A stretch of DNA of 64,000 bases from the NCBI GenBank assembly GCA_905250025.1, contig CAJNOJ010000043.1, positions 1-64,000 of the forward strand, read 5' to 3'. Both the position numbers and the translations under genes were made by a program. Shown piece after piece: positions 25,513 to 36,658 of this stretch. Under the pieces are notes generated by a model. The model made no database searches and was not told where the DNA came from. It was given only the letters and a program-made list of their open reading frames with translations. How positions within the stretch are numbered: position 1 is the first letter of the stretch; every line of letters starts with the position of its first letter. Source of the DNA: Adineta ricciae. Its lineage: Eukaryota; Rotifera; Eurotatoria; Adinetida; Adinetidae.

Positions 25513-26165
25513 TCATTTGTCTTTACGAGCGAGAAGTTCTTGAGCTTTTTTCCCGACAAATTGTCGACCGGCATTGGATGTGTTGATCCATTCTTCAGGT
25601 GAAAATAGATCGAAAAAACCGATTTGTATTAATGTTGGCACACATTGTTCTAATAGTTGCTCGACCTCACCGCGTTGACCTTCGTTATACAGTGCGATGT
25701 TTTTGAGCATAGAACCAACAGTGCCCGTTTGAACACGTGTTCCATCTTTGAGTTCAATACTCGGCAATGCTATTCCCTCTTTCAGATTCAAGATTTCTGC
25801 ATATTTAGCTGCTAGGTTACTACTAGCAGTATTTTCACCGGATGAAATTTGATCTGCAGAAAAAGAATACAGATTTCCATGAATAATGGCATATAGCTTC
25901 TCTTCAAAGGAGATGAAAACTGCACTGGGTTACCTTTTCTATTGTTGGAGCTGTTTGCAATTGTCGTTGTTGATATATGTCGTTTGCTAACAGCAGATTT
26001 TTGTATACAAACACAACGATCCGTGTTTGTGGTAGTATTTAGATCGAATATTCTGTCGGAAATTGTTTTAGATCTGGGTGTTATATTATTTTGAACGATT
26101 CTGTGAGCGGCACGACTAGGCATGATACTCAGCAGTGATGTACAACGACGAAGAATTGTAGTCAT
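25513..26165 (-). CDS. Small conserved protein with probable mitochondrial presequence, unknown function
   Basis: Two exons, 26165-25934 and 25853-25513, joined as G|AT, 190 residues. The N-terminal 75 residues are rich in Arg, Ser and Thr and lack acidic residues (MTTILRRCTSLLSIMPSRAA), typical of a mitochondrial targeting peptide. The C-terminal 100 residues form a compact domain: LNLKEGIALPSIELKDGTRV, QTGTVGSMLKNIALYNEG, GEVEQLLEQCVPTLIQIGFF, SPEEWINTSNAGRQFVG. It resembles small single-domain bacterial proteins of unknown function in style, but I cannot name the family with certainty. The intron (80 bp) separates the presequence from the domain, consistent with addition of a targeting exon to an acquired domain. 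Confidence 0.75.
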
Positions 26166-27081: not shown

Positions 27082-30000
27082 TTATGATTCAGTTATATCG
27101 ACCATTTTACGATAAGTGCCTCTTTTGTTCATTAGTTCTTCGTGCGAACCTTCCTCATTGAGACGTCCTTGTACTAGTACAGCAATCTTATCACTGTTGT
27201 AAATGGTGGATAAGCGATGGGCTATTTTCACACAAGTACGATCCTGACGAGTGCGTTCTATAGTGGCCATAATTTTCTGCAGAAAGTTACAATAGAACAC
27301 GAATTGGTAGTAGCGTGAGAGTATTTACCTTTTCTACTTCGACATCAAGCGCCGAAGTTGCTTCATCGAACAGAATCAGTTTAGGTTTTCGAATAAGTGC
27401 TCGTGCTATAGCAATGCGCTGTTTTTGACCACCGGATAATCTACTTTGACCTTCAGAACCACACATAGTATCGTAGCCCTATGTAGATGTGAAAAAGAGT
27501 ATATGGTATTTTAGATTCAATCATATTATTCACCTGTTCGAGTCGAATAATTGTTTCGTGAATATCTGCTTCTCTTGCAGCATTTTCAATCTCTTCATTC
27601 GAAAACGTTCGACCAATATCTCCATAGGCAATATTATCTCGAATGGATAGATTGAAAAGCACTGGTTCCTGTTGAACAATGCCTACTATTGATCTGAGCC
27701 ATTTGATATTGAGTGTACGCAAATCATGTCCATCCAATTCTACGGAACCTTTGACTGGATCATAGAACCGTTGTATCAATGCAACACAAGTTGATTTTCC
27801 AGAACCACTCGGACCAACAATGGCTGTCTGTGAATTGGCTGCGCAAGTCAGTGACAAGCGACGCAAAGCATATACTTTGCGTCGAGATGGATAACCAAAA
27901 GTAACATTGCGAAATCGCAATTCACCTCGAACAGTCTCCTGCGAGAAATATACAACATATCAATTTCATCTACCGCTAAAATATATACTAACTAGCTTTA
28001 TACCATCTTCGCTGTCGGGATCAATGCGAGATTGTCGTGCATTCAGTTCAATGATACGTTTAGCTGCTTGTTTAGCTCGATTATAATTCGGCACCATACT
28101 AACACTACGCCCGAACGCTACGGTAGCATAAGTGATGACAGCGAATACTCTTCATGAATAGTAAATTTGAATAATAGATATATTTCAATTGATAACTTAC
28201 TGGAAAACTTTCACGTAAGTCATTTCGCCGTTGCGAACGAGTTGTGCCCCGTACCCGAATGCCGCAGTATGAATGAAAAACATCAATGAATTCGCTAGTG
28301 CGTTAGCAAAAGCTGTGCGTTGACTTTGTTTTAATGCATGTCTACAAGGACAGATAATTTAGAATTAATTTCTTTATAGAAAAATGAATAGCTGTCCGAT
28401 AGATTTACTTGAAGTCACGATCAAACGTTTCTTTATAAAGTTCAATAAAATAATTCTCGACATGTAGTGAAACAACCGTACGAATGTTTTGTACAGCTTC
28501 AATCGCATACTAAAAATTTGTGAAAATGCTCACTAAATTTACACCTTCTTTATTGATCGAAAGCTCTTACTTTGCCAGCAGTTTCTGCATTCGTTGACAC
28601 ATTGCGTTTCTGTCCGGCTTTAGCCAATGTCGAACCTTGGACTATTCCAGTGATGATAATAAACGGAGTGAAACAGAGAAGAACCAGTGTTAGTTTCCAT
28701 CCGGCACTGAAACTAATAGCAAGTCCTGCGACTAGTGTACCGACTGCATTGAGGAAGGCGCCAATCGTCACACCTGTCATGCCTTTCAACGCAGCTGCAT
28801 CACTTGCAAGTCGTGTGACAAGTACTCCATGTCGATTGACTTCTTGTTCAAACCACGATAATTCCTGGCGGAGCATTGTGGCGAAAGAAAGCATTCGCAT
28901 TCTTGTGGTTAATGCTTCACCCGAATAAGCAAAGGCCAATGACGAGACGAACTGACAAAGACCGCCCGCTAGACCGATGCAGAAGACATATATAGCATAA
29001 TTGCGTGCATTGCGTTCAGCCACCGATGCATCTGGTTCAGAAAATAAGCCGAAAACGAGCGAAAATGTAAAAGCAAACGATGGCATGACGGCACCGAAAA
29101 ATAATGCAGCAATACTACCTAACAAGATAGGTAGCCATTCGGGTGCGTTCATTCGAAGAATATCAAGAAAAAGCGGTCGTCTTGATGTCTTTATCAATTT
29201 ATTATTATCGTCATCGGTGTAAACTTCTGTCTTTGCACTTATTGACGATTGATTTGAATGAGTCGAACGAATGGACATGTGACGTTCGAACACATCTACA
29301 TAAAAGAATACTAACATAGTCTTAAGAAAACATCATTTCTAGGAAGACTGACCGTGGTTTTCTAGTTGTGCGTCATCAATCTCACCATCGATCTCGTCTT
29401 CAATTGGAGTACCATCGGCCATTTGCTGCGCAATAACTGCTCGCGCATAGTTTCCGTTACGAGCCATCAATTCAGCATGGGTTCCTTGCTCATGAACAAT
29501 GCCGCCTCGTTCTAAACCAACAATAAGATCAGCAGTGTAAATGGTTGATAGGCGATGAGCAATGACGATTGTTGTTCGACCACGCCGTGCTTGGTCAAGT
29601 GCTTTCTGTACTTCGCGTTCACTTTCCGTATCTACGTAGAGTATCGATATTATCAGATACTTTGAGGAAAAATTTTACCTAGTGCAGACGTGGCTTCGTC
29701 AAGTAAAAGAATTTTTGGATTGGACACAAGTGCTCGGGCAATAGCTATGCTAAAAATTTCATTAGGAGAAAACAATGATGTATATTACACAATGAATTAA
29801 TGTGCTGTACTCACCGCTGCTTTTGTCCACCCGAAAAATCACGGCCTGTCACTTGCGTTTCGTATTTCTAAAGACAGATTAAAACTTCGTATCAAATCGA
29901 ATATGCGAGAGATGAATTCATTCTTCTTAGCAGTAAAAAAGCAATGTGCTAAGACTTACATTCGGCAAACTTTGAATAAATTCATCAATATTCGCCAGTT

Positions 30001-32464
30001 TAGCTGCAGCATACACGTCAGCATCATTTGCCGATAAGTTACCTAACCGAATGTTCTCCGCAACAGTACCAGAAAAGAGCACAGGCTCTTGTCCAACAAC
30101 TCCGATTTGAGATCGTAGCCATCCCAAATTCAATTGTCGTGCATCTACTCCATCAATCAGGACCTGCAAACATCGACAGATTAATACTGAGTCGATTTTC
30201 GTCAATTTGTCCTATACTTGGCCTTGATCAGGATCGTAAAATCGTTGAATTAATTGAACAATTGTGCTCTCTGATAAAATGAAGAGTCTATGTAGAAATA
30301 CCGGCAGTGAAAAGAAGGAAGTAGCACTTACTTCCACACCCGGTCTCTCCAACAATAGCAGTTGTCGTACCGTTTCGAAACATGAGACTTAATCCTTGCA
30401 AAATCTACAATCAAGATTCGTTTTAGTAGATCACAACAGAGAACACTTAATGTACCGGTTGAGCTTCTTTCCTGGCTGGATAGTTGAAGATAACGTTACG
30501 AAATTCAATATCACCATGTAACTGAATATTGGATTGTTGTTGCTCACTACGGTCACTGATGTCAATGGGTGATTTCTATTCCAATGTGTACATTTGAATA
30601 AATCGAAATATTTAAGTAGAATTCGATACATACTCGATCTATAAGGGCAAAAACTCGTGCACCTGCTATAGATACTTCGGCAAATTCCAGCACAGCAGGA
30701 ATGAGTGTCGAGATATTGTTACTAGAGACAAGGCATGATGTGAAGATCTACATGTAAGATTAATATTATAGTAAAATAAGTATTTTGGTAGTCATCTACT
30801 TACGATAATAACTATCCCCGCATTGTAATTCCAACATTCCACACGAGTTAGATGAGGTCCATACCAAAAAATCAAACCAATAGAACCATATAGAGCGATG
30901 TTAACAAATGCTTGACTAATCCCAAGTAATAATCCTTTTTTATGACCTGTTTTCTTCGATTCTACTAAACTATCTTCATATCTACAATATCAGACTACAT
31001 ATATTTCAGTTTCTGTATGAACTATCTTCACTAACCTCTTTAGTTCTCGCTGTTGTCCGCAGAAAGCAGTTACAGTTCGTATTGCCGATAGAACCTCGTG
31101 CACAATAGAATTCGCCTGATTATAAGCAGCCTTCTCTTTCGCTGTATACTTTTTCATGATCTGAAAACCGACGCATATTGATTGTTTATGAAAAATTTTG
31201 ATCAGTCCTTACCATTACACTTGCATTGAACGTCAATACAATCAGTGGTGAGACACTCAGAAAAACCAAGGTCAGCTTCCAGCCAACATACAACGCATAG
31301 CAAAGACAACCCAGAATACGAGCACTCAAAGCAACGAAATCTGCTACTTTGACACCAATACCATCATGAATTGTATCTAAAGAACTAAAACAATGACGAA
31401 TAGTTGATTCGTTCAAATGCAGTGCACATACTCGATTAACAATCCACTGGATAGATTGCTGGATATTTGAGTATCGAACCAGCCGATGTTTTGCTTCATC
31501 ATGTTGCTGAACAAAGCGTATCTATAAGAGAAAAAAAGCAGGTATTTCATTTCGAAATAATCAATCCATCACTAGCTACCTCATGCGACGCACTTGTCGT
31601 TCAGCTGTGATGATCCAACATGTATACGAAATCCAATAGAGAATAAAACAACAGGCACCTAGAATCGGATACCACTTGATGACTGACATGATATCATCAT
31701 AGGGTGATAGCTTTTCAGTTCCATTTGATACCGATGATGCGGTACTAGCTAGACTAAAAGAAACAGGAATGAGAGATGATAATGATTTGTTCCTACTAGA
31801 GTAAACGAGATCCCTCACCAGCCATGAAATATGCTAGATGTTTCGTTGTAGTCTGCTGTGCTTCTGCCCAGAGCTACGAAGCCATTGACAACGCGTTGAT
31901 AAACAAGGAAAATGAGAGGAAATGTAGCACCACTAGCCAATCCTAAAAACCACAAAGAGCCATTCTGTTTGAATTCATTATATAATTCTTGTTCGTACCT
32001 GATATCAAAGCAATGATGATCAGAACTACGTCCCATCTGTTCGCAAAACGATACTAAACATGCAGAAGTTTAGTCAAACCATATAGACCGTACTATTTCC
32101 ACTTACAATCTGATAGAATTTCAATTTATTTGGTTTTTTAGTAGATGATTTTTGTTTGGACGATCTATTTCAACATAAAATACAAATTAACATCGAATTG
32201 CTTGTAACTATTCCAAACGAACGAAAATTCTCAAAAGCTGCACTAAAATTTCACTGATTTTCTATCATACAGTTCTCTCACTACCTGTAATTTATCAGAT
32301 AAAAAAAGCAACTTTACTTACAATTGTTCAGGTAGATTAATACTGGCGTGTTTTAGTATTTCGTTATCCTTGACAGCTTGACTTTCAAGCGTACCATATG
32401 TGTTAGTTTGATTCGCAGTTTTTGCAACATCACCATGCTGCTTTCTAGGATGTATCGACGGCAT
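27082..32464 (-). CDS. ABCB1: ABCB1-type full ABC transporter (P-glycoprotein / MDR)
   Basis: A 24-exon gene whose exons all join in frame: 32464-32322, 32164-32107, 32053-31999, 31942-31819, 31753-31580, 31521-31432, 31384-31213, 31160-31036, 30981-30804, 30747-30634, 30575-30456, 30404-30332, 30270-30218, 30163-29960, 29867-29815, 29749-29679, 29631-29353, 29295-28571, 28509-28409, 28341-28201, 28149-27993, 27938-27534, 27478-27329 and 27276-27082, 1319 residues (human ABCB1 1280). The architecture is TMD1-NBD1-linker-TMD2-NBD2. NBD1 has Walker A GETGCGKST, signature FSGGQKQR and Walker [16 protein letters not shown]2 has [17 protein letters not shown] and [12 protein letters not shown]. 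It is a plasma-membrane exporter of hydrophobic compounds, including cyclic peptides. NBD1's signature starts with Phe instead of Leu. It lies head-to-head with the CDPS gene, which may or may not be functional linkage. Confidence 0.95.
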
Positions 32465-33281: not shown

Positions 33282-33289
33282 TATATAAG
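33282..33289 (+). promoter_or_regulatory. TATA box (TATATAAG) of the CDPS-P450 unit
   Basis: TATATAAG lies 72 bases before the CDPS start codon, predicting a start of transcription near 33312 and a leader of about 50 bases. No comparable element is visible in the 133 bp between CDPS and P450, consistent with one promoter serving both genes. Confidence 0.6.
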
Positions 33290-33360: not shown

Positions 33361-34425
33361 ATGGCCTCGGACATCTTTCAAAAAGATATTCTTCTATCAG
33401 TGCCATGTTGCATTGAAAGTTTTGATCTTGACCAACGAAGCCGTTCAGGTAGTACGGTGAGTAATTGCAGCAGCATCATCGACGAAGATTGGGCTCCTTT
33501 AACTGGACGAAGCAGTGAAACGGAAAAGAATGAAACACTATCTTCGACAATGGATGCTGATATCATCGCTCAAGTTTACTCTAATATTGTTCAAGTACCA
33601 TGGCAAGATGAACTCGCGATAGGTTGTAATCAGAACGAAAATTTACATATTTGCCTTGGAATTAGTCCTAGTCAATTTCGACGACTCTTACCGTCGAAAC
33701 GTGATGCTGCTCAAACATTTCCTCGTGTAGCCATCTTGTACGCGTATATGGCTCTCAAATATACACTGGAACAAATCAACCAAACAAAAACGAATGACTC
33801 TTCCAAGTCTCTCGTTGTACTTATTGTTGATGCCATTCAGAAGTATAATTTTGCAGTATTCAACAATAAGCTGTTGAGTACTGGTACTGCTTTAAAATAC
33901 GCCCTAGAAGAAGGAGATCGGCTGGCTGATGTGTTCGAACAGGCGCGGCGGCAACTAGAACCTGAACTTGCTCAATGCGTCACTGTCATTCGCTGGCATG
34001 ACATCTGTACGGATAAATACAAAGAATATGTTGAGATATTTCGTCGACATACAATGGACAATGAACAATTCGCTGAACTCGTCGAGGATGTGGTAAAAAT
34101 CTTTATTAAAGTACGCAAACCAACTAATCATTTCACTGCCGAACAACATTTAACCCTCCAAGAGTACGTTTTCAACGAACTACCTGCTTTAACACAAGGT
34201 ATTGTGTATGACAATCATCATTATCGAATCATTGCACATCCGGTTTTGTCATCCGATGATAAAAAAAATGATGATCAAAGAAATGTGATGCTTCGTCTTC
34301 TGAACTATATTCGAAATTCTACTGAACTTGCTCAAAATTTAGATCTAATCGAAAAAGTACATATGTGCGATGTCTATGATATCGTTATGCCTGCTTTTAA
34401 GCCGTTTAATCTATACACTAAGTGA
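33361..34425 (+). CDS. Cyclodipeptide synthase (CDPS) homologue
   Basis: A single-exon gene of 354 residues in an intron-rich neighbourhood. CDPSs condense two aminoacyl-tRNAs into a cyclic dipeptide through a Ser-bound intermediate on a class-I tRNA-synthetase-like Rossmann fold. Visible matches to the family: LGIS at 99-102 with the nucleophile-equivalent Ser102 (Ser37 in AlbC), the strand VVLIVDAIQKYNF at 152-164, a long helix with LADVFEQARRQLE, VTVIRWHDI then YKEYVEIFRRHTMDNEQFAE, and Tyr269-x3-Glu273 in EYVFNELP, equivalent to AlbC Tyr178/Glu182. The residue three after Ser102 is Gln, not Asn, which speaks against the NYH subfamily. The N-terminal 92 residues are an extra Ser/Asp-rich extension. 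The identification rests on motif order and spacing seen by eye. Likely horizontally acquired. Confidence 0.8.
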   Translation: MASDIFQKDILLSVPCCIESFDLDQRSRSGSTVSNCSSIIDEDWAPLTGRSSETEKNETLSSTMDADIIAQVYSNIVQVPWQDELAIGCNQNENLHICLGISPSQFRRLLPSKRDAAQTFPRVAILYAYMALKYTLEQINQTKTNDSSKSLVVLIVDAIQKYNFAVFNNKLLSTGTALKYALEEGDRLADVFEQARRQLEPELAQCVTVIRWHDICTDKYKEYVEIFRRHTMDNEQFAELVEDVVKIFIKVRKPTNHFTAEQHLTLQEYVFNELPALTQGIVYDNHHYRIIAHPVLSSDDKKNDDQRNVMLRLLNYIRNSTELAQNLDLIEKVHMCDVYDIVMPAFKPFNLYTK

Positions 34426-34558
34426 CACTGTTTACTAATACCATATAGTCTTTTTCGATTGTCATGGTTTTTTAAACTCGAAGAGGAAAATTTTACTAAT
34501 ATACTATTTACAAATATAATTAACCGAAATGATCTAGTTTGATTTATTTTTAGATAAA
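34426..34558 (+). other. CDPS-P450 intercistronic region with acceptor-like site
   Basis: Only 133 bp separate the CDPS stop from the P450 start. The last part reads TTTGATTTATTTTTAG at 34538-34553, a polypyrimidine tract with AG, five bases before the ATG. There is no TATA box. This is what a trans-splice acceptor of a downstream operon gene would look like. Spliced-leader trans-splicing is known in bdelloid rotifers. Confidence 0.5.
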
Positions 34559-36208
34559 ATGATAGAACTGAAAACACTTAGTAAACACTGGCCAAACAAT
34601 GATGCTATACATTCATTGATAGGCGATAAAGGCGTGAATCTTAACTTCGTAGGATTAATTATCATGGGTTCATTGATTGGTTTTCTACTGTCCAAAATAC
34701 CGGTGGCAACTGTTGTACTGCTCGGCATCTTCTTGGGTATTTTATGCTATTTTTTGTATCGAAAGGTAAAAGCGATAGGAGACTGGCCAAATGCAACCGG
34801 AACTACCTATCGATTTCCTTTCGGTGATGTACGAGCAATACAAGAAAGTCCCGATGGACGTTATCTGCTCAATCTATGGAAGAAACTCGGCTCACCTGAA
34901 ATCTATCGAATTTGGTTTGGCCCATCACCGGCACTAATGTTAGCTCATCCCAATGTTGTCCGACAATTTTGGCAACAACATGACGAAACATCGATTGACC
35001 GTATTGTCAAACTCGGTTGGCCATTATTAATGATTATGGGCGAAGGTATGGGTTTCAAAGCATATCAAAACCGGAACCGTATCAATCGATTTTTCCACGC
35101 TTGTTTCGGAATAAAACAAGTAAAATACTTTGAAAATAGTTACGAAGATCAGATTGATCTTTTCATGCAACGCTTTGACTCTCATGTGGCTGAAGCAAAA
35201 GGTGCAGCTGTGGACGTAGCTAATGAACTTCGTTACTTATCGCTCGATGCCAGTATAGATTTATTTGTGGGAGCGAAGGGTAAGAAATATTTAGACCAAC
35301 TGCATGAACTTGTCGATGAATTAGCAACACTTATGACTGTGACATTCAATGCTCGGTATATCAATGTTCCCGGCTTACAATGGTTTTTGCCGGAGACGTA
35401 TCGACTTCGATATGACATCTGGACTTTTCGGAAAAAGTGGCATGAGTTACTTCGTACACTTATGCGTGAATATGAGGAAGAGGGAAATATAGAACAAAGT
35501 GCAGAAGACGATTCAATACTTGTACACTACATTCGAATGCAGAAGACAAATGACAAAAGTGAAATTACATTCGATGAATTATCGGATACGATGATTGAAG
35601 GTTTTCTCGCTCCACTGGATGGTGTCGCCGCTACATTCGCAAACACACTTATCCTCTTAGCGCTGAATCCTGATAAACAAACAAAAGCACGCGAACAAAT
35701 CCGTGAACGACTAGCATTTGGAAACGAGAAAACCATTACATTAGCCGATCTCGACGGATTCAAATACCTTGACCATGTTCTGTCTGAATGCCAACGTCTA
35801 TTACCTATCTTTGTTTTCAATGTTCCTGAGTTAGCCAGCCGTCAAATGACATTGAAGGACGTAACAATACCAAAGGATACATTAGTGATGTACGATGTTC
35901 AAACGTTGAATCGGCATGAGGATGTTTGGCCTGACCCATTATCTTTTCAGCCAGAACGCTTTGAATGTTTAAATGATAAACAACGTAAAGCCTTGCATGG
36001 ATTTGGTAATGGACGAAGTCGACGATGCCTTGGTGAACATTTCGTGCCTCTTCTTCACAAGCTCCTTATTGCGCGTATCCTTCTCACTTATCAATTGGAA
36101 CCATGTAGTAACGAACGTGATATTGACAGATTGCCAAGAGTCAAGCGGCCTTTCATTTATGTACCTCATGTCATACTAAAATTTATTCCAATCGACAACA
36201 CAAATTAA
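34559..36208 (+). CDS. Membrane-anchored cytochrome P450
   Basis: A single-exon gene of 549 residues. An N-terminal hydrophobic hairpin at about 29-67 would anchor it in the ER. P450 landmarks: I-helix LDGVAATFANT at 353-363, the K-helix ExxR as E410-C-Q-R413, PERF at 465-468, and the haem loop FGNGRSRRCLGEHF with Cys490 as thiolate ligand. The haem loop has eight rather than seven steps from Phe to Cys, one more than the usual FxxGxRxCxG. It follows the CDPS gene by 133 bp on the same strand, so oxidation of the cyclic dipeptide is the natural hypothesis; P450s are common tailoring partners of bacterial CDPSs. The enzyme clan cannot be assigned by eye. Lack of introns in a gene of this length is unusual here and suggests recent acquisition or retroposition. 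Confidence 0.92.
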   Translation: MIELKTLSKHWPNNDAIHSLIGDKGVNLNFVGLIIMGSLIGFLLSKIPVATVVLLGIFLGILCYFLYRKVKAIGDWPNATGTTYRFPFGDVRAIQESPDGRYLLNLWKKLGSPEIYRIWFGPSPALMLAHPNVVRQFWQQHDETSIDRIVKLGWPLLMIMGEGMGFKAYQNRNRINRFFHACFGIKQVKYFENSYEDQIDLFMQRFDSHVAEAKGAAVDVANELRYLSLDASIDLFVGAKGKKYLDQLHELVDELATLMTVTFNARYINVPGLQWFLPETYRLRYDIWTFRKKWHELLRTLMREYEEEGNIEQSAEDDSILVHYIRMQKTNDKSEITFDELSDTMIEGFLAPLDGVAATFANTLILLALNPDKQTKAREQIRERLAFGNEKTITLADLDGFKYLDHVLSECQRLLPIFVFNVPELASRQMTLKDVTIPKDTLVMYDVQTLNRHEDVWPDPLSFQPERFECLNDKQRKALHGFGNGRSRRCLGEHFVPLLHKLLIARILLTYQLEPCSNERDIDRLPRVKRPFIYVPHVILKFIPIDNTN

Positions 36209-36658
36209 CTTATACTGCAGTGGATAACGTGTAAATTTTTGTTTTTAATTTTTGAAAAAAGAATAAACCTGATCTTGTGACTTATAGAGTTGCGTAGTAC
36301 TCATTGTGTGTGTGTGAAGCGGATATTGGATTAAAAAAGAGTGTTGTGATTGAGTAGCAGCATAACAATTCGACACTACACTGAAAGATGACGCTTTATG
36401 TCAATTAAGTCGACTCTAGAAATCTTCGGACATTTCCTTCTATCATTAGTGATACTCATCTTCATCATCTGCTGTTCACTTCCCTGTTCGATAAACGTTC
36501 ACCTATTTGAAAATAGTACTCACAGAAAAAGTAGCCGTACAATACCTATGGCAACATAAAAGCAATCATGATGAAAGTTTTGAAAATGTTTAAAAGAAAA
36601 CAAATTCAATGTCGCACTGTTTACATGTGTTTCGATTTACTTAACTCATTCTATCCGA
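36209..36658. other. Intergenic region
   Basis: The 3' flank of P450 with an AATAAA at about 36261, then AT-rich sequence up to the TLDc gene. No feature beyond the probable polyadenylation signal. Confidence 0.45.

What the first reader, a model, noticed from the sequence alone, without database searches (positions are those of the whole stretch)
33361..36208. CDPS-P450 pair arranged as a two-gene biosynthetic operon
Two intronless genes follow each other on the + strand with 133 bp between them. Only the first has a TATA box. The second has a pyrimidine tract plus AG five bases before its ATG, the layout of an SL trans-splice acceptor. In bacteria, CDPS genes are commonly paired with P450s that oxidise or dimerise the cyclic dipeptide. 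A eukaryotic CDPS-P450 operon would be a new type of animal natural-product pathway, in keeping with the report of horizontally acquired NRPS/PKS genes in bdelloid rotifers.
Basis: partly seen in the sequence, partly recalled or inferred. Interest (0 to 1): 0.93.

Follow-up and report, generated by a model that had tools for sequence, protein, structure and literature searches.

The report
Rotifer cyclodipeptide synthase–P450 gene pair
A bdelloid rotifer carries neighbouring genes for an enzyme that probably joins two amino acids into a ring and an oxidising enzyme likely to modify the product, and at two other places in the same genome the two are welded into one gene, pointing to a small-molecule pathway that I found no report of in rotifers.

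Summary
Window 33361-34425 encodes a 354-aa cyclodipeptide synthase (CDPS) and 34559-36208 a 549-aa P450: both intronless, same strand, 133 bp apart, with a pyrimidine-AG site five bases before the second ATG. The genome is Adineta ricciae.

The pairing is not chance. The genome search found three CDPS loci; at all three, the nearest relatives of this P450 lie directly downstream. At the other two (C223, C381) the domains form ONE spliced gene, an 812-aa CDPS-linker-membrane anchor-P450 protein; the database proteins equal my splice models. A partial A. vaga protein spans the same junction; relatives occur in Rotaria. A bacterial-type gene, DUF7709, was found at exactly three loci, each upstream of one unit.

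The CDPS is supported by fold and catalytic residues, though under curated profile cut-offs; it resembles fungal/XYP enzymes, not the known NYH animal ones. The P450 has an unusual I-helix and a Cys loop one residue longer than usual.

Most likely: tRNA-dependent cyclodipeptide synthesis, then P450 oxidation at the ER. Spliced-leader genes exist, but bicistronic transcription is unproven. A common donor is not shown; the P450's origin is unresolved. Bacterial CDPS-P450 operons, and a bacterial fusion, are already known.

The parts
33361..34425 (+). Cyclodipeptide synthase, split-type, single exon, 354 aa; low-confidence N-terminus (residues 1-60); catalytic Ser102, Tyr269, Glu273; His293-Pro294
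34426..34558 (+). 133-bp gap: no TATAWA, no AATAAA; ends in a splice-acceptor-like tract (AG at 34552-34553) five bases before the P450 ATG
34559..36208 (+). Cytochrome P450, single exon, 549 aa; about 44-residue double-length hydrophobic anchor (residues 25-68), I-helix APLDG, ECQR, PERF, Cys loop FGNGRSRRCLG
33282..33288 (+). TATA-like site 79 bp before the CDPS ATG (weak evidence)
36262..36267 (+). AATAAA poly(A) signal downstream of the P450
25516..25929 (-). DUF7709 gene (open frame with the domain; start of the gene not determined): bacterial-type, one of the three loci found in the genome, all upstream of CDPS-P450 units
27082..32400 (-). Multi-exon ABCB1/ABCB4-like exporter gene divergent from the CDPS (boundaries approximate, read by eye); no relative found on C381 or C223; possible exporter

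Best explanation
The two genes are the split form of a bdelloid diketopiperazine pathway. The CDPS takes two aminoacyl-tRNAs and makes a cyclic dipeptide; the P450, anchored in the ER membrane by a probable two-pass hairpin, oxidises it. At two other loci the same enzymes are one fused protein, with both catalytic domains predicted on the cytosolic side of the membrane, where aminoacyl-tRNAs are. In the window the two proteins are made separately: the CDPS from its own promoter, and the P450 either from a spliced-leader-resolved bicistronic transcript or from its own transcript. Shown from sequence: both families, adjacency at the three loci found, fusion at two, purifying selection on the fused pair, SL genes. 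Inferred: catalytic activity, the cyclodipeptide as P450 substrate, hairpin topology, bicistronic transcription (about even odds), a defensive role.
For: 3 of 3 CDPS loci found carry the P450 next door, and these P450s are the query's best-scoring relatives by locus among 52 matches. Fusion: both spliced models are letter-for-letter the database proteins P0012 and P0013, 812 aa each, with four introns at matching places and phases; A. vaga P0014 starts inside the CDPS tail and runs through linker, anchor and P450. Purifying selection on the fused pair: dN 0.30 against dS 2.1 (CDPS part 0.29/3.1, P450 part 0.27/1.9; NG86, near saturation; YN00 failed). CDPS fold and catalytic residues. 46 SL-like sites, 0 in the reversed-pattern control; the four I read are followed by GTAAA. 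Double-length hydrophobic anchor in both types.
Against: No transcript, enzyme or metabolite data. The CDPS scores below both curated profile cut-offs, and TIGR04539 does not ring at any of the three loci in a genome search. The P450 departs from the usual I-helix motif and Cys-loop spacing, so a normal monooxygenase activity is not assured. The acceptor motif fits an ordinary trans-spliced single gene as well as an operon. Adjacency of the split pair in other species could not be tested. Selection on the window pair itself could not be measured (dS undefined or saturated against C223).
Confidence: 0.72

Rival explanations
1. Two neighbouring genes with separate promoters, each monocistronic; the P450 is an ordinary trans-spliced gene. 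The enzymes still work together, but there is no operon. (This rival concerns only the transcription step.)
For: More than half of bdelloid transcripts are reported trans-spliced (passages), so an acceptor before an ATG is expected for single genes too. The absence of TATAWA and of AATAAA in 133 bp is each expected about 86% of the time.
Against: 133 bp leaves little room for a 3' end plus a promoter; at the other two loci the two domains lie in one transcription unit.
Confidence: 0.45
2. In the window too the two ORFs are joined by cis-splicing into one fused protein.
For: 21 in-frame GT-AG joinings exist on paper in the stretch I scanned; the two paralogous loci are fused.
Against: By eye none combines a strong donor with a join that keeps the whole CDPS domain. 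CDPS-only proteins are annotated in Rotaria (P0002, P0003, P0008), and P450s with their own N-termini are in the database (P0016-P0018).
Confidence: 0.1
3. The CDPS-like protein is a degenerate tRNA-binding relative without peptide-forming activity.
For: Weak Pfam/NCBIfam scores; His in place of Tyr at the position that by spacing corresponds to AlbC Tyr202 (AlbC numbering recalled).
Against: Ser102, Tyr269 and Glu273 kept in 10 of 10 rotifer rows of A3; the same His in 12 of the 14 other rows (one Gln, one gap), which are Fusarium or unnamed proteins; a Fusarium structure is deposited as CDPS; constraint on the fused pair.
Confidence: 0.12
4. Contamination, or a very recent bacterial or fungal insertion.
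For: The ORFs are intronless and CDPS is a rare family in animals.
Against: A multi-exon ABCB gene lies beside them on the same 542-kb contig; two paralogous loci carry spliceosomal introns at shared positions; relatives in Adineta and Rotaria.
Confidence: 0.01

Closest known systems
Bacterial CDPS-P450 operons (Bacillus pulcherriminic acid; M. tuberculosis cYY)
   Same: CDPS gene in a conserved operon with the P450 that oxidises its product (PMC2922099, passages)
   Different: Animal genome; membrane-anchored P450; only a weak match to the bacterial CDPS-associated P450 model TIGR04538 (9.1e-5, 21.5 of 500 bits)
Bacterial NYH CDPS 71, a CDPS-P450 fusion
   Same: N-terminal CDPS fused to a C-terminal P450 (PMC5816076, passages)
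   Different: About 240 + 410 aa and NYH subfamily per the paper. Here 812 aa, hydrophobic anchor between the domains, XYP-like CDPS, animal
Animal CDPSs (Nematostella, Platynereis, corals)
   Same: CDPS encoded by an animal
   Different: The 2010 survey called all the versions it found standalone (passages); the marine animal ones of the 2018 survey are NYH (passages). A 2022 review lists four eukaryotic phyla, without Rotifera (passages)
Fusarium CDPSs (FoCDPS, PDB 31ee)
   Same: Best solved-structure match by sequence; same Tyr/Glu and, in most rows, His-Pro
   Different: Mostly 26-29% identity over about half the protein; no P450 in the proteins seen, but the search's length limit would have hidden fusions; Thr in 14 of 14 non-rotifer rows where the rotifers have Ser
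Bdelloid horizontally acquired NRPS/PKS clusters
   Same: Horizontally acquired biosynthesis near ABCB1 exporters and a P450 in A. ricciae (PMC11258130, passages)
   Different: tRNA-dependent, small, two enzymes; 'cyclodipeptide' and 'diketopiperazine' occur 0 times in that paper's main text

Membership tests
Cyclodipeptide synthase (CDPS) | Curated profile score | tested here: not met
   PF16715 20.3 of 27 bits; TIGR04539 23.9 of 45 bits: hits with E below 1e-3 but under the cut-offs
Cyclodipeptide synthase (CDPS) | Rossmannoid class-I aaRS-like CDPS fold | tested here: met
   AF2 model, mean pLDDT 77.9, 178 of 354 residues at 90 or above; Foldseek ranks 1-44 all CDPS, TMt 0.57-0.71, TMq 0.39-0.47
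Cyclodipeptide synthase (CDPS) | Catalytic Ser, Tyr and Glu (AlbC Ser37, Tyr178, Glu182; numbering recalled) | tested here: met
   Ser102, Tyr269, Glu273 in 10 of 10 rotifer rows of A3; Tyr and Glu in 24 of 24 rows; both fused proteins keep them too (alignment A1)
Cyclodipeptide synthase (CDPS) | Makes cyclodipeptides from aminoacyl-tRNAs | not testable with these tools
   needs expression and LC-MS
XYP subfamily of CDPS | Not Asn at position 40; Tyr202-Pro203 (recalled numbering) | tested here: inconclusive
   Gln105 and Pro294 fit; His293 replaces Tyr, as in 12 of 14 non-rotifer rows of A3; positions inferred from spacing
NYH subfamily (known animal CDPSs) | Asn40, Tyr202-His203 (recalled numbering) | tested here: not met
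   Gln105, His293-Pro294
Cytochrome P450 | Fold, ExxR, PERF, heme Cys | tested here: met
   PF00067 1.9e-57; motifs; fold of the fused homologue P0012
Cytochrome P450 | Canonical I-helix AGx[DE]T and FxxGxRxCxG spacing | tested here: not met
   A-P at the motif start (APxDG in 8, APDEF in 1) and an 11-residue Cys loop in 9 of 9 rotifer rows; the 10-residue loop in 13 of 13 comparators, of which 12 show AG and one (P0023) no pattern match
Bacterial CDPS-associated P450 (TIGR04538) | Score over cut-off | tested here: not met
   21.5 of 500 bits
SL-resolved operon | SL RNA genes in the genome | tested here: met
   0 exact matches to the published leader; 46 with 1-3 mismatches (41 with one), reversed control 0; four read, all followed by GTAAA
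SL-resolved operon | Bicistronic precursor and SL-capped downstream mRNA | not testable with these tools
   needs RNA data
One-donor horizontal cluster | Both genes from the same donor lineage | tested here: inconclusive
   P450: with animals 94/93 (not starred), with prokaryotes not rejected, AU p 0.137; CDPS: no named non-rotifer relative in a single-sequence search, fungal ones only with a seeded alignment, long branch

The most novel reading that the evidence does not exclude
Bdelloid rotifers run an animal diketopiperazine pathway in which a CDPS and a structurally atypical P450 are fused through a two-pass ER hairpin into one bifunctional enzyme. The window's pair is the same enzyme split by gene fission and expressed through a spliced-leader acceptor. 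The P450, with its altered I-helix and Cys loop, performs an unusual oxidation on the ring.
Probability: 0.3. Interest if true: 0.9.

Novelty: new variant of a known kind. Interest (0 to 1): 0.75.

Why it matters
If active, this would, as far as the papers seen here go, be the first CDPS described in Rotifera, the first XYP-like CDPS in an animal, and the first animal CDPS covalently joined to its presumed tailoring oxidase. The fused protein is compact enough to express in one construct, so the product and the P450's chemistry can be tested directly. Having fused and split forms in one genome gives a test case for how eukaryotic operons, trans-splicing and gene fusion interconvert. It also adds a second, tRNA-dependent arm to the reported chemical arsenal of bdelloids.

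Tried and rejected
Rejected: chance adjacency (3 of 3 loci found). Thought less likely: origin of the window pair as a lone retrocopy. DUF7709 lies upstream at all three loci, which favours a duplicated block, although it is 7.4 kb away in the window and why the window copy has no introns is still open. Tried without result: bacterial CDPS relatives through genome contigs (595 pattern stretches, 0 confirmed); Fusarium CDPS against plasmids (no match); TIGR04539 in 3 genomes (0 of 3) and in 398 genomes drawn from the phylum of G001 (1 of 398, 20.6 bits, below cut-off). TIGR04539 also misses the copies in the window's own genome, so that model is too insensitive to prove absence. DUF7709 in bacteria is not next to CDPS or P450 in the stretches held (0 of 9 loci; L050, L054 and L055 are cut short by contig ends). 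The P450 donor is unresolved (I left out L014, whose frame was under my 380-aa filter, and P0017, P0021, P0022 and P0025). Nearest curated P450 models point both ways: bacterial pentalenene oxygenase 1.5e-21 but far under cut-off, human CYP2C9 1.4e-20 in the PDB. Rfam and tRNA scans of the window: nothing. Idea not supported: that the P450's trans-splice acceptor is exactly homologous to the linker-intron acceptor of the fused genes; in the alignment they lie about 30 residues apart.
Full report
WHERE. [quoted passage not shown] ricciae, on contigs of those same lengths. The window is the first 64 kb of C43 (542,432 bp).

THE TWO GENES. CDPS 33361-34425 and P450 34559-36208 are single open frames on the + strand, 133 bp apart. 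CDPS assignment: profile hits have E below 1e-3 but lie below curated cut-offs. PDB sequence matches are all CDPSs (8 of 8, best 2.4e-9). An AlphaFold model from 24 aligned sequences has mean pLDDT 77.9, with 178 of 354 residues at 90 or above and residues 1-60 under 50. Foldseek ranks 1-44 are CDPSs; tyrosyl- and tryptophanyl-tRNA synthetases, structural cousins, appear among ranks 45-50. Ser102, Tyr269 and Glu273 are conserved in 10 of 10 rotifer rows of alignment A3. The P450 assignment is secure.

THE PAIR IS INHERITED AS A UNIT. A six-frame search of the genome with the CDPS gives five matches at three loci: the window, C381, C223 (the tool's counts are lower bounds). The same search with the P450 gives 52 matches; after the window itself the best-scoring loci are C381 and C223, directly behind the CDPS, at 43-49% identity. 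The next locus, C288, reaches 34% over 220 aa with stops inside. In the trees the two fused CDPSs form one starred group, as do the window-type P450s and the four fused-type P450s (in one search the fused-type P450s were unresolved).

AT TWO LOCI THEY ARE ONE GENE. Removing four GT-AG introns (49-87 bp, at the same alignment positions and phases at both loci) gives an 812-aa open frame in each: CDPS, a low-complexity linker, a hydrophobic anchor, P450. The CDPS exon reads straight into the first part of the anchor, and the P450 exon of C381 has no ATG at its start. The database annotations are identical. A. vaga P0014 (584 aa) begins in the CDPS tail and spans the junction. The fused pair is under purifying selection (dN 0.30, dS 2.1, NG86, near saturation; YN00 failed). 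Between the window and C223 the values are saturated or undefined (CDPS dN 0.70, dS undefined; P450 0.57/2.6), so selection on the window pair is untested.

DISTRIBUTION. Split-type CDPSs are annotated in Rotaria sordida (P0002, 66% identity; P0008), Rotaria sp. Silwood2 (P0003) and, as a 204-aa part, A. steineri; a window-type P450 in Silwood2 (P0018) and a fused-type P450 domain in R. sordida (P0015; whether it is fused there is not known). So both types probably predate the Adineta-Rotaria split. Outside A. ricciae the joining of the two is shown only by the A. vaga protein.

NEIGHBOURS. DUF7709 was found at exactly three loci (3 candidates, 3 matches), one upstream of each CDPS-P450 unit on the opposite strand; it rang in 0 of 14 control genomes. 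Its relatives found are bacterial (9 loci, up to 63% identity; that collection holds only prokaryotes), so it looks horizontally acquired; in those bacteria it is not near CDPS or P450 (0 of 9). In the window an ABCB1/ABCB4-like exporter lies between DUF7709 and the CDPS. Such genes are many here (68 exon matches, none on C381 or C223), so the exporter link is only suggestive. A similar ABCB1 association is described for A. ricciae NRPS/PKS clusters (PMC11258130, passages).

MEMBRANE ANCHOR. With a Kyte-Doolittle threshold of my choosing, four comparison P450s have an N-terminal hydrophobic stretch of 17-22 residues. Three fused-type rows (C223, C381, A. vaga) and four window-type rows (window, P0016-P0018) have 38-47, enough for two passes; P0019 has 27; P0015 was not scored. 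Inference: a hairpin would keep the CDPS on the cytosolic side with the P450, where aminoacyl-tRNAs are. A single pass with the P450 in the cytosol would put the fused CDPS in the ER lumen. That the split P450 keeps the double anchor fits descent from a fused ancestor, but does not prove it. The fused AlphaFold model (mean pLDDT 82.2, pTM 0.60) shows one 48-residue helix there and does not settle the topology.

P450 CHEMISTRY. 9 of 9 rotifer rows have Pro at the second position of the I-helix motif (APxDG in 8, APDEF in P0019) and a Cys loop one residue longer (FGNGxxRRCLG). The 13 comparison P450s all have the usual loop spacing; P0021 matched neither pattern. An atypical oxidation is possible; this is inference.

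TRANS-SPLICING. The bdelloid SL sequence in print (PMC3795323, passages) has no exact match here, but occurs with one base changed at 41 places and with two or three changes at 5 more, against 0 for the reversed control. The four read are followed by GTAAA. So the machinery very probably exists. The acceptor before the P450 ATG is a 2-4% event by chance, but any trans-spliced gene would have one. The operon is plausible, not shown.

ORIGIN. A search of 5.8 billion proteins with the window CDPS alone returned 11 proteins, the window's own included; those with a species name are bdelloid, and none is fungal or bacterial by name. Fusarium CDPSs appeared with help from a Fusarium fragment that I had put in the query alignment, which inflates those scores; the unaided evidence is the 2.4e-9 PDB match. 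The outgroup that I labelled fungal includes two unnamed proteins (P0036, P0052). The P450 groups with animal P450s at 94/93, not starred, and grouping with prokaryotes is not rejected (p 0.137). One donor for both is not supported and not excluded.

KNOWN AND NEW. CDPS-P450 operons (PMC2922099, passages) and a CDPS-P450 fusion (PMC5816076, passages) are known in bacteria. Animal CDPSs are known from cnidarians and annelids, and the 2018 survey puts the marine animal ones in NYH and the XYP eukaryotes in fungi; a 2022 review lists Ascomycota, Annelida, Ciliophora and Cnidaria, not Rotifera (PMC11610984, passages). Three searches of the held library showed no paper on a rotifer CDPS (one paper, unrelated by its listing; 15 listed of 16; 15 listed of 1,254, with 0 occurrences of cyclodipeptide or diketopiperazine in each). 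Papers outside that library, and the unlisted ones, were not seen.

Noticed in passing
G000 C6, C8, C43, C77, C79, C99, C146 (e.g. L029/L030): SL RNA genes sit in divergent inverted pairs: 17 pairs under 600 bp among 41 one-mismatch sites, 12 of them exactly 153 bp apart.
   Followed up: partly
window 25516-25929 (-); L048, L049: DUF7709, a bacterial-type small protein, found at exactly three loci in the genome, each upstream of a CDPS-P450 unit; function unknown.
   Followed up: partly
L026 and L027: C381 and C223 also share a methyltransferase-like gene upstream, but the shared trypsin-like gene lies on opposite sides of the unit, so the segments have been rearranged (gene names by my reading of the translations, no family search).
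   Followed up: no
P0030, P0038, P0040, P0046, P0049, P0053, P0055, P0056: Eight Fusarium proteins in the CDPS hit list bear the name 'chitinase', an apparent misannotation.
   Followed up: no
P0042: A 588-aa database protein joins an EpsG-like membrane part (PF14897) to a Fusarium-like CDPS; probably an assembly chimera.
   Followed up: no
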